DNA of 64,000 nt from Prochlorococcus marinus str. MIT 0917 (GTDB lineage: Bacteria; Cyanobacteriota; Cyanobacteriia; PCC-6307; Cyanobiaceae), in contig NZ_CP114784.1 of assembly GCF_027359575.1 (NCBI RefSeq), forward strand, positions 310,001-374,000. Direction: 5' to 3'. The notes beneath the pieces are model-generated. The model ran no database searches, was not told where the DNA came from, and saw only the letters and a program-made list of their open reading frames with translations. Of the stretch, positions 34,361-54,758 are shown piece by piece (position 1 is the stretch's first letter; every line of letters begins with the position of its first letter). Made by a program: the position numbers and the translations under genes.

Positions 34361-34379
34361 ATTCTATTAATAATAGAAT
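34361..34379 (+). promoter_or_regulatory. Hairpin covering the start of the RNase II gene
   Basis: ATTCTATT-AAT-AATAGAAT is a perfect 8-bp inverted repeat with a three-base loop. Its right arm includes the first two bases of the only ATG of the following RNase gene (34378-34380) and no Shine-Dalgarno sequence is free. It may limit translation of the nuclease, act as a processing site, or end the rpmG-rpsR transcript. Confidence 0.5.
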
Positions 34380-35661
34380 GTGCAATAAAGAAATAGATAA
34401 TGAAATTAAAGATATAATATCTACATTTAAACAAACAAATAATATAGATAGTCCGGCGGAAGACCTTACACATCTGAAAACGTATTCTATAGATGATTAT
34501 CAAACGTTTGAAATAGATGATGCTATTTCATTAGAAAAAATATCTTATCAGTATAAGCTATGGATACACATTGCTTCTCCTACTTCATATTTTGAATATC
34601 AATCAGCAATTGATAAAAAAGCAAGGAAGCTTAATTCAACGGTTTATTTATCAACTAATACTTATTATATGCTTCCTGAAATTTTGATAAATGATGTGTT
34701 TAGTCTAAGTAATAATGAAAAGAGAGAATCAGTAAGTTTAGGTGTTATTTTTAATGAAGATGGTAGTGTTGCTTCTACAGAGATAGTCCAGAGTATTATT
34801 AAAGTTAACTTTAGGTTAAATTATACAGAAGCTGATGAACTAATAGATTATGCGCCCAAAGAAGAAGAAGATTTAAGTATCATCTCTGAAATTTTACAAA
34901 GAAGAAAATGTTGGAGAAAGAATTCAGGTGCTATGGAAATATTAGAGTCATATGGAAAGATTATTGTAAAAGATAACAATCCCACAATCAAGATAATAGA
35001 TCCAACGTTATCGAGGCAATTAATAAGTGAAGCAATGATCTTGTATGGAAATGTAATTTCAAATTTTACTAAGGTCAATAAAATTCCTGTTCCATATAGA
35101 GTCCAACAAAGTATAGATAAAGTTTCTAAAGATATTATTCAATATTCTGATAATAATGTTTTATACAATTTTCTACTTAAGAGAACGATGGGTAAGTCAT
35201 ATTATTCTATAAAACCTTTACCTCACAAGAGTTTAGGATTGACATCTTATCTACATTGCACATCACCGATAAGAAGATATGCTGACTTGTTGGTTAACTA
35301 CCAACTAAATAGATATCTAAATAATAAAGAACTTATATCTAAAGATGATGTTGAACAAATGACTATCCAGATTAATAATCAAGGAAGAGAAAATATTATG
35401 AGATATAGAGATGATCAAAAACATTGGCTAATTCAATGGTTCAAAAAAAATTCGATTAAGGAATATAATGTGATTTTACTAAATTGGATAAACAAATATA
35501 AAAATATTTGTAATTTATACTTTATAGAATATCACTTTTCTACTATATGTAATCTAAAATCAAAAAAGAACTTAAATATCGGCGAGAGCTTTAACGTTCA
35601 AAATATAGTCTATAATAATGATGATATAATATATTTTGAATTAATTTCATTATCAAAATAA
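34378..35661 (+). CDS. Short RNase II-family (RNB) exoribonuclease
   Basis: A 427-residue protein that begins almost directly with the RNB domain. The metal-binding catalytic cluster is intact: D39, E45, D47 and D48 in SIDDYQTFEIDDAIS, corresponding to the RNase II aspartates with a conservative D-to-E exchange at the second position. The RNA-path signature CTSPIRRYADLLVNYQL is also intact. The N-terminal cold-shock domains are absent and the last 90 residues show no clear S1 motif. It should therefore be an active 3'-to-5' RNase with weak or partner-supplied RNA binding. It follows rpsR by 32 bases. Confidence 0.88.
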   Translation: MCNKEIDNEIKDIISTFKQTNNIDSPAEDLTHLKTYSIDDYQTFEIDDAISLEKISYQYKLWIHIASPTSYFEYQSAIDKKARKLNSTVYLSTNTYYMLPEILINDVFSLSNNEKRESVSLGVIFNEDGSVASTEIVQSIIKVNFRLNYTEADELIDYAPKEEEDLSIISEILQRRKCWRKNSGAMEILESYGKIIVKDNNPTIKIIDPTLSRQLISEAMILYGNVISNFTKVNKIPVPYRVQQSIDKVSKDIIQYSDNNVLYNFLLKRTMGKSYYSIKPLPHKSLGLTSYLHCTSPIRRYADLLVNYQLNRYLNNKELISKDDVEQMTIQINNQGRENIMRYRDDQKHWLIQWFKKNSIKEYNVILLNWINKYKNICNLYFIEYHFSTICNLKSKKNLNIGESFNVQNIVYNNDDIIYFELISLSK

Positions 35662-51483: not shown

Positions 51484-51723
51484 GTTGATTAAAAGTTTTT
51501 TATATTCTACTAAACAAGAGGCTTTCCTACCCATTAATTTAAAAAATTTGATGTTATATCTTCACTAATTGCTATTTATGGATTATTTGTGTTGTTCTTT
51601 GACTATGGATAAAATCGACTCAGAACAGACAATCTGTTGATTGCTTGATCATTTATCGTTTTTATATATAAAATGTGATTGTTGTATAAACATATAGAAG
51701 GCAACATCACTGAATTGGAATTA

Positions 51724-52071
51724 ATGGGTAAACCTAAACAAATTTCTAAACCAGAAGTGAGTGATATAGCTGATAACACTCCTTTTTTAAGTATATTAAT
51801 TACATCTTTTAGTACTATTTTTTTGGCTGAGTTAGGGGACAAGACACAACTTGCCACATTAATTTTATCTGCTCAGTCTGGTAAACCCCTAATTATTTTC
51901 ATTGGAGCTGCTCTCGCACTTATTTCAACAAGCCTTCTCGGAGTTTTAATAGGAAGATGGATAGCAAATAACTTACCCAGAAAAAGGTTTACTATAATTT
52001 CAGGAATAATTATGTTAAGTTTAGGAATATATCTAGTAACACTAAGCTTTATTGACTTTCTTCAAAATTAG
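51724..52071 (+). CDS. UPF0016/Gdt1 half-transporter A
   Basis: A half-size Gdt1/TMEM165-type cation transporter (115 residues) with three predicted membrane helices and one copy of the signature ExGDKT as AELGDKTQLATLIL near residues 45-58. The family exports Mn2+ or Ca2+ in exchange for H+; the cyanobacterial Mnx protein is a member. Full-length members have two such halves, so this chain probably pairs with the one encoded just downstream. An in-frame TTG at 51679 is a longer possible start; the ATG at 51724 is preferred. Confidence 0.87.
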   Translation: MGKPKQISKPEVSDIADNTPFLSILITSFSTIFLAELGDKTQLATLILSAQSGKPLIIFIGAALALISTSLLGVLIGRWIANNLPRKRFTIISGIIMLSLGIYLVTLSFIDFLQN

Positions 52072-52087
52072 AACTTGATCTTTTTTA

Positions 52088-52384
52088 ATGATTCTAACGC
52101 TTCTTTTTACAACATTTGTCACTGTTTTTCTTGCTGAAATGGGCGACAAAACTCAATTAACAACAATAACTTTAAGTAGTACTACTAATAAACCTTTAGC
52201 TGTTTTTATTGGCTCGTCATTAGCCCTTATATTAGCTACGCTTTTAGGGGCACTTGCAGGAGGGTCTATTGCCAACCTAATTCCTGCATTCTTACTAAAA
52301 CTACTTTCTGGAATAGTATTCTTAATTATTGGTATTAACCTTTTAGTTCAAAGCGAAAAAGAAACTACTAATGATAGCTTATAA
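52088..52384 (+). CDS. UPF0016/Gdt1 half-transporter B
   Basis: The second Gdt1 half (98 residues), three predicted membrane helices and one signature, AEMGDKTQLTTITLS, near residues 18-32. The gene starts 17 bases after half A. Inverted pairing of two three-helix halves gives the complete six-helix transporter. Function in Mn2+ or Ca2+ handling is from the family; no metal specificity can be read here. Confidence 0.87.
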   Translation: MILTLLFTTFVTVFLAEMGDKTQLTTITLSSTTNKPLAVFIGSSLALILATLLGALAGGSIANLIPAFLLKLLSGIVFLIIGINLLVQSEKETTNDSL

Positions 52385-52466: not shown

Positions 52467-54758
52467 ATGACCTCAGTTTTACAAATACTAGAAAGTCTTG
52501 ATATAGAGAAAGGATTAGAAGTTTCTAAACTTGAGAAATCCTTAAAACTCACAAAAAAACAAGATAGAGATAATTTGAACATTGCTATTAAAGCCCTTAA
52601 AAAGCTACGAATTGTTCAAAGTAATCAAGATGATAAACTTACAATCAACAATGATAGATGTTTTCTGCAAGGTAGGGTGCGATGTAGTAGTAAAGGCTAT
52701 TGCTTTGTTGTTAGAGAGGATCAAGGCGAAGATATTTATATTAGAGAAGCAAATTTAAATAATGCTTGGCATGGTGATTCCGTAATTGTTTTAATCACAA
52801 AGCAAGCAGTTAAAAGAAGAGCACCAGAAGGCTCAATTCAATGTGTATTAGAAAGATATAATAATATTTTGCTTGCAAAGGTAGAATCTGAACAATCAAC
52901 AGGTGAATTAAAGGCTTACCCTTTAGATGACAGGATACCAGTTGTTATTGATCTTGAAAATAGTGAAGATTATAAAAAAAAGATTACTGATAAAGATTTA
53001 ATTTATGAAATAAAGATAAATAAATTTCCAATTGCTCAATTTAAAGCAAAAGGATCGATAATTAGAGATTTATCAATTAATGCTGGTGTAGATGGTGATA
53101 TTGAATTATTACTTTCAAAGAATAATATTTCTAGAATTTTTGATGTCCCTAAAATCGCCCCTAAGAAAATCCCTTTAAAAGGAAGAGAAGACCTAACAAG
53201 TCAACCTTCTTTATTATTAGATAGTTGGGAATCTAAAAACTCTCCATCCCTTCCTGCGTTATATGCCCAACCCTATGAAGGTGGTAACAGAATATGGCTT
53301 CATTCTCCTTCAGTTTCCGAAAGAATCAATTTAGGCAGCAAACTAGATAAATATCTTAAAGAAAAGGGGGAGGTTATTTGTTTAGGAAATGATTGGCTGG
53401 ACTTCCTTAATGATTCGCTTAGTTCAGCATCTAAATTTAAACTTAATGAAGAATCAGAAGCAATTTCACTGGTTATAGATATTAATGGGGAAGGTGAGAT
53501 AATAGATTGGAAATTTGTTCTTAGCATTGTTAAACCAGTAAAACTTATTACAGCAAAACAGCTTAAGGCAATTAACAATAGAAAGCCAACATCCAAGTCC
53601 ATTCCTGTAGTACTTAAAGCTATCAAAGATAATCTTGAAGTAATTTATACGATTTTACATTCAGCAAAACTAATCAATAATACCAATAATGTATCTATTA
53701 AATTAGATGAGTACATCCCTAATATAGACAGATTAAGTGAATTACAAATAACTTTTCCTGGCAGGGACTTTCATGGATGGTCTAAAACATATGACAGTGG
53801 TGATCCTCAGTCCATATTAGATATCTATATTAGACTTTCTAATAATATACTTGCCAAGCATTTAGTTGGATATAAATTGCCAATTATATATAAGGAACAT
53901 GAAGAAATAGATCAATCATATATTAATGAGGTGTCTAAATCAGCATTGGCATTAGATAAAAAGATAACAGTAAATCCTGATGGTACCGTAACGATAATTG
54001 AGTTAATAAAATCATTTGAGTCAAGTACCGAAAAGAAAATACTTCATAAACTTATGAAGCATATAATTCCTGGGATTCATTTGAAACTTTATAAGCCAAA
54101 TTCTGATATAGATAATGATGATCAAAATAAAGAGATAAAAACAAATAATATTGAGGCCTTTTGGTGTTGCCCTTATTTGAATTATTGGAATGTTTTTAAT
54201 CAGCTTATATTAACTTCACTTTTAGCTGATGGTAAAAATAAATCTACTAGTCGAAGTAAGGAAATTATAGACTTGGGTAAAAAAGATAGCTGGAGAGATG
54301 TTGATTGGGATATCTTCTCATCTAAGATAAAGGAAAATATTGATAAGCATTCAAATTTAAGGTTAGTTCAAAATCTAAATGAAATAAGAAAAAAGTCGAA
54401 ATCCTTTAGAAATAACATAATATCAATTGCTCAGTGTAGGGAAGCACAGAAAATCATAGGTAAAGAAGTAACCGCTGTTATTACTGGAGTACAAAGTTAT
54501 GGTTTTTTTGCTGAGATAGAAGATTTAACGGCTGAAGGATTAGTACACGTAAGCACTTTAGGTGACGATTGGTATGAATATAGATCTAGACAGAACCTTT
54601 TAGTTGGAAGAAAGAATAAAAAGACTTATCAACTTGCTCAAAATGTTAATGTTAGGGTTCTAAAGGTAGATATTATAAAAAATCAAATTGATTTGGAGCT
54701 TGTAAAAGATTCTGATAAAGAATCAATAAATAAAATTGATATTGATTCTTATAGTTAA
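52467..54758 (+). CDS. RNase R-like (RNB/S1) protein with lost catalytic cluster
   Basis: A 763-residue RNase R/II homologue. In order: N-terminal helical domain, a cold-shock domain (about 69-112, GRVRCSSKGYCFVVREDQGE), an RNB-like region and a C-terminal S1 domain (about 670-750, VTAVITGVQSYGFFAEIEDL). The RNB entry REDLTSQPSLLLDSWES is recognisable near 239-256, but where the DFDDA metal cluster belongs the sequence is NSPSLPA (258-264); only D252 of four acids remains. The RNA-path CxxPIRRYxDL motif is degraded to CCPYLNYWNVFNQL. It is thus probably an RNA-binding pseudo-nuclease. The UbiX-like gene starts six bases downstream. Confidence 0.88.
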   Translation: MTSVLQILESLDIEKGLEVSKLEKSLKLTKKQDRDNLNIAIKALKKLRIVQSNQDDKLTINNDRCFLQGRVRCSSKGYCFVVREDQGEDIYIREANLNNAWHGDSVIVLITKQAVKRRAPEGSIQCVLERYNNILLAKVESEQSTGELKAYPLDDRIPVVIDLENSEDYKKKITDKDLIYEIKINKFPIAQFKAKGSIIRDLSINAGVDGDIELLLSKNNISRIFDVPKIAPKKIPLKGREDLTSQPSLLLDSWESKNSPSLPALYAQPYEGGNRIWLHSPSVSERINLGSKLDKYLKEKGEVICLGNDWLDFLNDSLSSASKFKLNEESEAISLVIDINGEGEIIDWKFVLSIVKPVKLITAKQLKAINNRKPTSKSIPVVLKAIKDNLEVIYTILHSAKLINNTNNVSIKLDEYIPNIDRLSELQITFPGRDFHGWSKTYDSGDPQSILDIYIRLSNNILAKHLVGYKLPIIYKEHEEIDQSYINEVSKSALALDKKITVNPDGTVTIIELIKSFESSTEKKILHKLMKHIIPGIHLKLYKPNSDIDNDDQNKEIKTNNIEAFWCCPYLNYWNVFNQLILTSLLADGKNKSTSRSKEIIDLGKKDSWRDVDWDIFSSKIKENIDKHSNLRLVQNLNEIRKKSKSFRNNIISIAQCREAQKIIGKEVTAVITGVQSYGFFAEIEDLTAEGLVHVSTLGDDWYEYRSRQNLLVGRKNKKTYQLAQNVNVRVLKVDIIKNQIDLELVKDSDKESINKIDIDSYS

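What the first reader, a model, noticed from the sequence alone, without database searches (positions are those of the whole stretch)
53220..53260. RNase R-like protein that has lost the RNB metal cluster
The 763-residue protein keeps its cold-shock and S1 domains and a recognisable RNB entry, but the DFDDA block is replaced by NSPSLPA and the CTSPIRRYxDL-type motif is replaced by CCPYLNYWNVFNQL. Three of the four catalytic aspartates are gone. The frame is open across 2.3 kb, so it is not a pseudogene. Inference: an RNA-binding scaffold or regulator evolved from a nuclease.
Basis: partly seen in the sequence, partly recalled or inferred. Interest (0 to 1): 0.72.

Follow-up and report, generated by a model that had tools for sequence, protein, structure and literature searches.

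The report
Known inactive nuclease relative, Zam
The protein is the Prochlorococcus version of Zam, a cyanobacterial relative of an RNA-degrading enzyme that was already reported to have lost its cutting site; what this survey adds is that marine relatives carry a fixed replacement site, and that the second enzyme of the pair in Prochlorococcus has lost its front third.

Summary
The 763-residue frame at 52467-54758 is an RNase R-fold protein whose RNB metal cluster is gone; even the aspartate that is left (D252) is not conserved. But it is not new: it is the ortholog of Zam, which Thomas et al. 2022 (PMC9145284) described across cyanobacteria as an RNB protein with a degenerate active site, two redox cysteines in the first cold-shock domain (C73/C79, as here) and no detected nuclease activity. 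It is under purifying selection (median dN/dS 0.14 in its genus), strongest in CSD1 and S1. Best reading: a redox-gated regulator of RNA decay, possibly acting on RNase E.

Not met in the papers seen: (1) in picocyanobacteria the former site carries fixed new residues (W254, P260, W566, N578, Q579 in 134-137 of 137 rows); (2) the genome's intact RNB paralog, also in this window (34378-35661), lacks the roughly 260 N-terminal residues found in other cyanobacteria, so in Prochlorococcus catalysis and the CSD1/S1 domains lie on different proteins; (3) six of 37 Zams outside the family keep both central aspartates.

The parts
52467..54758 (+). zam: RNase R-fold protein with dead RNB site, 763 aa
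52662..52847 (+). CSD1 (residues 66-127), slowest-evolving domain
   Evidence: OB_RNB 69-125; mean rate 0.28
52683..52703 (+). redox cysteine pair C73/C79 in the motif RCSSKGYCF
   Evidence: each C in 136 of 137 picocyanobacterial rows, both in 36 of 37 other Zams; redox role from PMC9145284
52848..53081 (+). CSD2 region (residues 128-205, bounds taken from strands of the model, not from a Pfam hit), poorly conserved
   Evidence: strands 134-203; mean rate 1.04; the Pfam CSD2 hit (87-130) overlaps CSD1
53184..54224 (+). RNB domain (residues 240-586), catalytic residues lost
53220..53260 (+). former Asp-cluster segment, residues 252-265, now DSWESKNSPSLPAL with W254, P260, L262, P263 near-fixed in picocyanobacteria
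54162..54203 (+). former TSPxRRY segment, residues 566-579, WCCPYLNYWNVFNQ with W566 near-fixed, N578 and Q579 fixed in picocyanobacteria
54456..54704 (+). S1 domain (residues 664-746)
34378..35661 (+). rnb paralog, 427 aa, RNB domain only (28-315), catalytic motif SIDDYQTFEIDDA and CTSPIRRY intact, N-terminal region missing

Best explanation
It is the Prochlorococcus ortholog of Zam, an RNase R-derived protein without exonuclease chemistry. Most likely it works as a redox-gated regulator of RNA decay. The reversible C73-C79 disulfide in the RNA-contacting loop of CSD1 switches CSD1/S1 between states, and in one of them Zam engages RNA and/or RNase E and changes turnover of a set of mRNAs. The dead RNB domain is kept as a folded core that holds CSD1 and S1 apart; in picocyanobacteria its former catalytic pocket has been re-packed with new fixed residues. 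Shown here: homology, predicted fold, loss of catalytic residues, selection pattern, cysteine conservation. Shown by others for PCC 7002: redox mobility shift, cysteine-dependent phenotype, no activity seen in vitro. Inferred: the RNase E/RNA step, the re-packing, and that the switch applies in Prochlorococcus, which generally lacks phycobilisomes (recalled), so the published pigment phenotype cannot be the conserved function.
For: Active-site columns lost. Zams form a branch apart from Rnb, picocyanobacterial ones one clade at 100 (quick tree). The AF2 model (pLDDT 87.6, pTM 0.87) matches RNase R structures (six rows at Z 33.5-35.7 over 531-608 residues, rmsd 3.2-4.5; a seventh, 8cdv_C, at Z 33.4 with rmsd 12.5), Dis3L2 (4pmw Z 33.8) and the pseudonuclease Ssd1 (7am1 Z 29.4, 600 residues, rmsd 3.9). 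Mean evolutionary rate CSD1 0.28 and S1 0.34 against RNB 1.06 and CSD2 1.04; dN/dS CSD1 0.053, S1 0.042, RNB 0.131. Cysteines near invariant. Ortholog in 271 of 300 family genomes, 193 of the 196 with good completeness. RNase E and PNPase present in the genome. Published Zam work in PMC9145284.
Against: PMC9145284 saw no RNA binding in vitro (aggregating protein). The review PMC10989914 reports Anabaena Alr1240 as an active RNase II that also boosts RNase E, and PMC9145284 takes the Anabaena protein of that report to be Zam; if so, family-wide inactivity is wrong. Six of 37 non-picocyanobacterial Zams keep D209 and D210. Positions 211, 285 and 488 are acidic in 82 of 82 non-redundant picocyanobacterial rows and 13 further positions in at least 80%; I could not measure whether any of them come together in the model. 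I met no interaction, expression or redox data for the Prochlorococcus protein.
Confidence: 0.62

Rival explanations
1. Split pair: in Prochlorococcus Zam supplies RNA binding in trans to the naked catalytic Rnb, so that two half-decayed paralogs together make one exonuclease.
For: Own Rnb has an intact motif but only an RNB domain; 28 of 50 family genomes have Rnb open frames of 398-466 aa and 18 of 50 have 676-737 aa; short versus long is one change on the Zam tree, support 99 (26 rows); Zam keeps CSD1 and S1 under the strongest constraint.
Against: The Zam site was already replaced in relatives whose Rnb is full length, so Zam did not lose its site because of this. The genes lie about 17 kb apart. 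No complex was predicted or tested. RNB proteins without canonical cold-shock domains exist (Deinococcus 2r7d, 461-469 residues).
Confidence: 0.12
2. Pure RNA-binding translational or stability regulator like yeast Ssd1, binding specific mRNAs on an outer CSD surface, independent of RNase E.
For: Same fold and the same kind of decay (7am1 Z 29.4); Ssd1 relocated its RNA binding to a conserved surface patch (abstract of PMC8934651); CSD1 is the most constrained part here.
Against: No RNA binding seen with PCC 7002 Zam; RNase E partner reported for the Anabaena protein.
Confidence: 0.2
3. The RNB pocket of picocyanobacterial Zam has gained a new ligand-binding or catalytic role.
For: The two former catalytic segments evolve somewhat slower than the rest of the RNB domain (mean rate 0.81 versus 1.10, Mann-Whitney p 0.041) and carry near-fixed W254, P260, W566 and fixed N578, Q579.
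Against: The residues are W/P/L/N/Q, which may only pack; no conserved acidic residue in the former catalytic columns; the rate difference is weak and the segments were chosen because they are the former site.
Confidence: 0.1
4. Still a working exonuclease, with metal held by residues from elsewhere.
For: Reported activity of Anabaena Alr1240 (review). In residues 206-663, 16 positions are acidic in at least 80% of 82 non-redundant rows, three of them (211, 285, 488) in all 82.
Against: None of those 16 positions is one of the four former catalytic columns, and R500 is lost too. That they do not come together in space was not measured.
Confidence: 0.04

Closest known systems
Zam of Synechocystis PCC 6803 (sll1910) and Synechococcus PCC 7002 (PMC9145284)
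   Same: RNB protein with cold-shock and S1 domains, CSD1 cysteines at 73 and 79, degenerate RNB site, conservation concentrated in OB-fold domains
   Different: Picocyanobacterial Zams read x-P-L-P at the four Asp columns and mostly L or F at R500; of 37 other Zams, 19 read E-N at the two central columns and 31 have R or Q at R500. In picocyanobacteria the CSD2 region is not more conserved than RNB
Yeast Ssd1 (PDB 7am1; PMC8934651)
   Same: Catalytically dead RNase II-family protein that keeps the fold; model matches at Z 29.4
   Different: Fungal Dis3L2 descent; no redox cysteine pair known to me; Ssd1 binds mRNA 5'UTRs, not shown for Zam
E. coli RNase R / RNase II
   Same: Fold (5xgu_A Z 33.5, rmsd 3.2; 2ix1_A Z 32.1, rmsd 7.0) and domain order
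   Different: Catalytic Asp and Arg residues lost, so the defining chemistry is missing

Membership tests
Zam (cyanobacterial RNB clade) | RNB domain with two cold-shock domains and S1 | tested here: met
   Pfam hits above cut-off for RNB, OB_RNB, S1 and CSD2; the CSD2 hit overlaps CSD1, so the second cold-shock domain rests on the model (strands 134-203) and its full-length match to RNase R
Zam (cyanobacterial RNB clade) | Two cysteines in the CSD1 L12 loop (C73/C79 in PCC 7002) | tested here: met
   C73 and C79 present; each C in 136 of 137 picocyanobacterial rows, both in 36 of 37 others
Zam (cyanobacterial RNB clade) | Degenerate RNB metal site | tested here: met
   D/P/L/P at D201/207/209/210, L at R500
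Zam (cyanobacterial RNB clade) | Groups apart from cyanobacterial Rnb in a tree | tested here: met
   58 Zam rows on one side of a branch with support 99, 18 Rnb rows one group with support 98 (quick tree, midpoint root, long E. coli branches)
Zam (cyanobacterial RNB clade) | Redox-dependent function in vivo | not testable with these tools
   needs mutants
RNase R / RNase II exoribonuclease | Four metal-binding acidic residues and the catalytic Arg | tested here: not met
RNase R (NCBIfam TIGR02063 equivalog) | Score above the curated cut-off of 597.85 bits | tested here: not met
   188.6 bits
RNase II-family pseudonuclease (Ssd1-like) | RNase II fold without a catalytic site | tested here: met
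   similarity of kind only, not descent; inactivity itself not assayed
RNase II-family pseudonuclease (Ssd1-like) | Sequence-specific mRNA binding | not testable with these tools
   needs CLIP or EMSA

The most novel reading that the evidence does not exclude
In streamlined Prochlorococcus the RNB machinery has been split by reciprocal decay: Rnb has become a bare catalytic domain (its roughly 260-residue N-terminal region lost), while Zam is a dead RNB core carrying the CSD1 and S1 RNA-binding domains under a redox switch. Zam would load RNA onto, or recruit, the naked Rnb (and RNase E), making 3' decay light- and redox-dependent through a two-protein nuclease.
Probability: 0.12. Interest if true: 0.65.

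Novelty: already known. Interest (0 to 1): 0.32.

Why it matters
It removes a likely mis-annotation (RNase R) from picocyanobacterial genomes and links the finding to a known photosynthesis regulator. If the picocyanobacterial additions hold, Prochlorococcus would be a simple natural system for asking what an ex-nuclease is kept for when phycobilisomes are gone and its catalytic paralog has shed its N-terminal region.

Tried and rejected
Second redox pair in the dead pocket (C305 with C567/C568): C305 and C567 are both Cys in 56 of 82 non-redundant rows (Fisher p 4e-5), but on the tree the association is not independent (median p 0.25 and 0.5); C305 with C568 shows none (median p 1). Dropped.

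Regained active site in the six D209-D210 Zams: the quick tree nested them among other Zams as one group (support 86; one change within Zam), but the constrained tree in which all other Zams form one clade had a likelihood 50.8 higher and AU p 0.954, so retention with a later loss is at least as good. Dropped. The same result shows that the free tree is not the best one for the order inside Zam.

Pseudogene: rejected by dN/dS. Of 406 pairs, 401 enter the overall and RNB medians (the five left out are identical pairs, one genome held in two collections); fewer enter the short regions (CSD1 335, CSD2 386, former sites 343, S1 359, residues 587-663 376). Median pS is about 0.6, so dS is high and the ratios are rough.

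A site completed by other acidic residues: judged from conservation only. On checking I found a third fully acidic position (488, E or D in 82 of 82) besides D211 and E285, and raised that rival from 0.03 to 0.04.

Papers: the primary Anabaena RNase II-RNase E paper (Zhou et al. 2020) is not held; I rely on its mention in PMC9145284 and PMC10989914. What I saw: PMC9145284 abstract, sections 1, 2.1, 3.1, 3.2, Discussion, figure legends and passages; PMC10989914, PMC3293843 and PMC10783494 passages only; PMC8097288 and PMC8934651 abstract and outline only; the rest search listings only. Supplements were not readable. That the picocyanobacterial additions were not met in print rests on the searches (open-licence papers only; several lists capped) and on PMC9145284's main text not holding the word Prochlorococcus.

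Full report
WHAT IS THERE. The + strand frame 52467-54758 encodes 763 residues without a stop. It scores well above the Pfam cut-offs for RNB, OB_RNB and S1 and just above that for CSD2, whose match (87-130) overlaps OB_RNB; it scores far below the curated cut-off for RNase R (188.6 against 597.85 bits). AlphaFold2, with 80 picocyanobacterial orthologs from named records as alignment, gives a confident model (pLDDT 87.6, pTM 0.87). Its best solved matches are RNase R (7dol_A Z 35.7 over 531 residues, rmsd 3.3; 5xgu_A Z 33.5 over 591, rmsd 3.2); the yeast pseudonuclease Ssd1 is also matched (7am1_A Z 29.4 over 600, rmsd 3.9).

THE SITE. Aligned with E. [quoted passage not shown] According to PMC3293843 (passages), these four aspartates and R500 form the site and D209 is the most critical. 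The residual D252 is D in only 2 of 137 picocyanobacterial rows. In residues 206-663 of 82 non-redundant rows, 16 positions are acidic in at least 80%, three of them (D211, E285, and 488 as E or D) in all 82, but none is a former catalytic column. Whether any of them meet in space was not measured.

IT IS ZAM. Thomas et al. 2022 (PMC9145284; abstract, named sections and passages) describe exactly this: a cyanobacterial RNB clade with degenerate active sites, conservation concentrated in CSD1, CSD2 and S1, essential CSD1 cysteines C73/C79, phenotypes of a zam deletion in PCC 7002, and no nuclease or RNA-binding activity seen with an aggregation-prone preparation. The window protein has cysteines at 73 and 79 in RCSSKGYCF; each is C in 136 of 137 picocyanobacterial rows and both are C in 36 of 37 other Zams. 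In an 82-row tree with the catalytic columns left out, 58 Zams lie together (99) apart from Rnb, and the 21 picocyanobacterial ones form one clade (100) on a long stem (quick tree, midpoint root). An ortholog is found in 271 of 300 family genomes (193 of the 196 at least 90% complete and at most 5% contaminated) and in 92 of 194 genomes of the phylum; all 92 matches are in the window's own class, and the 20 non-matching genomes that the output lists (82 more are not listed) are of other classes. The 80 named relatives kept of 578 are mostly Prochlorococcus, Synechococcus and Cyanobium.

SELECTION. In 29 sequences of the same genus (406 pairs, 401 usable overall) the median dN/dS is 0.136, with 0.053 in CSD1, 0.042 in S1, 0.131 in RNB and 0.100 in the two former catalytic segments (Nei-Gojobori, high dS, so rough; five genomes enter twice). 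Across 82 picocyanobacterial rows below 80% identity, mean relative rates are CSD1 0.28, S1 0.34, CSD2 region 1.04, RNB 1.06. So it is a functional gene whose most selected parts are CSD1 and S1. This agrees with the published picture except that the CSD2 region is not conserved here.

WHAT IS ADDED. First, in picocyanobacteria the lost site is not random: W254 136, P260 136, L262 130, P263 124, W566 134, N578 137, Q579 137 of 137 rows (copies of one genome included), and in 82 non-redundant rows the two segments evolve somewhat slower than the rest of the domain (0.81 against 1.10, p 0.041). Outside the family most of these columns differ: E-N at the two central positions in 19 of 37, N at 578 in 6 of 37; Q579 is shared by 29 of 37. 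Most likely the pocket was re-packed once at the base of the group; a new ligand role is not excluded. Second, of 37 Zams outside the family, six (L035, L036, L039, L046, L054, L199) keep D209 and D210 and a near-canonical TSPxRRY segment, though none has all four acidic residues. PMC9145284 says both that most Zams lack the four residues and that the canonical site is in none; these six fit the first wording better, and some may be active.

THE PARTNER PARALOG. The genome's only other RNB match is also in the window: 34378-35661, 427 aa, motif SIDDYQTFEIDDA and CTSPIRRY intact, Pfam RNB at 28-315 and nothing else above a cut-off. The preceding frame (ribosomal protein S18 by eye) ends about 30 bases upstream, leaving no room for more. 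Elsewhere Rnb open frames are mostly about 670-740 aa (the first a capped list). Of ten proteins scanned with Pfam, the one from outside the family carries CSD_RNase_II, wH_RNase_II and HTH_RNase_II before RNB; of four long family members, two show HTH_RNase_II (one above the cut-off, the other below it together with wH_RNase_II) and two show none of these; the five short ones show none. So in long family members the extra region is there by length but only partly recognisable. Of 50 family genomes, 28 have frames of 398-466 aa, 18 have 676-737 aa, one is split over two contigs and three show no second RNB match (90%, 81% and 74% complete). Short against long is a single change on a Zam tree of 26 of these (20 short, 6 long, support 99); G008, a short one of another genus, was not in that tree. 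So in Prochlorococcus catalysis sits on one protein and CSD1/S1 on the other. Whether they act together is untested and I put it at 0.12; the Zam site is also lost in relatives whose Rnb is still long, so the two losses were not simultaneous.

MECHANISM. Best reading: redox state sets the C73-C79 disulfide in the CSD1 RNA-contact loop; in one state Zam engages RNA and/or RNase E and shifts decay. RNase E and PNPase are present. The RNase E step rests on the Anabaena report as cited in PMC9145284 and PMC10989914. Precedent for such a protein is Ssd1 and the repeated loss of activity in fungal Dis3L2 relatives (abstracts of PMC8934651 and PMC8097288).

NEIGHBOURHOOD. recJ lies upstream and ubiX directly downstream. 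Within the fetched flanks (1.5-4 kb, some cut by contig ends) a ubiX match is found in 19 of 19 same-genus loci, in 33 of 33 others of the family (L023-L032, L070-L092), in 0 of 4 of genus g18, in 15 of 33 loci outside the family, and in 49 of 80 named loci; matches to the two small frames upstream of zam are found in 77 of those 80 and in 0 of 33 outside the family. This supports orthology and says little about function.

VERDICT. Real, correctly read, already known as Zam; modest new detail for picocyanobacteria.

Noticed in passing
34378-35661: The intact RNB paralog (Rnb) lacks the N-terminal region found in other cyanobacteria; short frames are seen in 28 of 50 family genomes, and short/long maps as one change on a 26-row Zam tree.
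   Followed up: partly
L035, L036, L039, L046, L054, L199: Zams outside picocyanobacteria that keep D209-D210 and a near-canonical TSPxRRY segment; possibly still active nucleases.
   Followed up: partly
L049:1992-4064: A 699-aa-frame Zam from family f18 lacks both redox cysteines and most of the former Asp segment; longest Zam end branch in the tree.
   Followed up: no
L065 (G420:C6:1830295-1830654): A separate 177-aa frame downstream of zam, 47% identical to window residues 634-747: a stand-alone copy of the S1 region.
   Followed up: no
51679-52384: Two tandem small frames, membrane-transporter-like by eye (GDT1/UPF0016, recalled), directly upstream of zam; matches to both in 77 of 80 named loci; no NCBIfam match.
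   Followed up: partly
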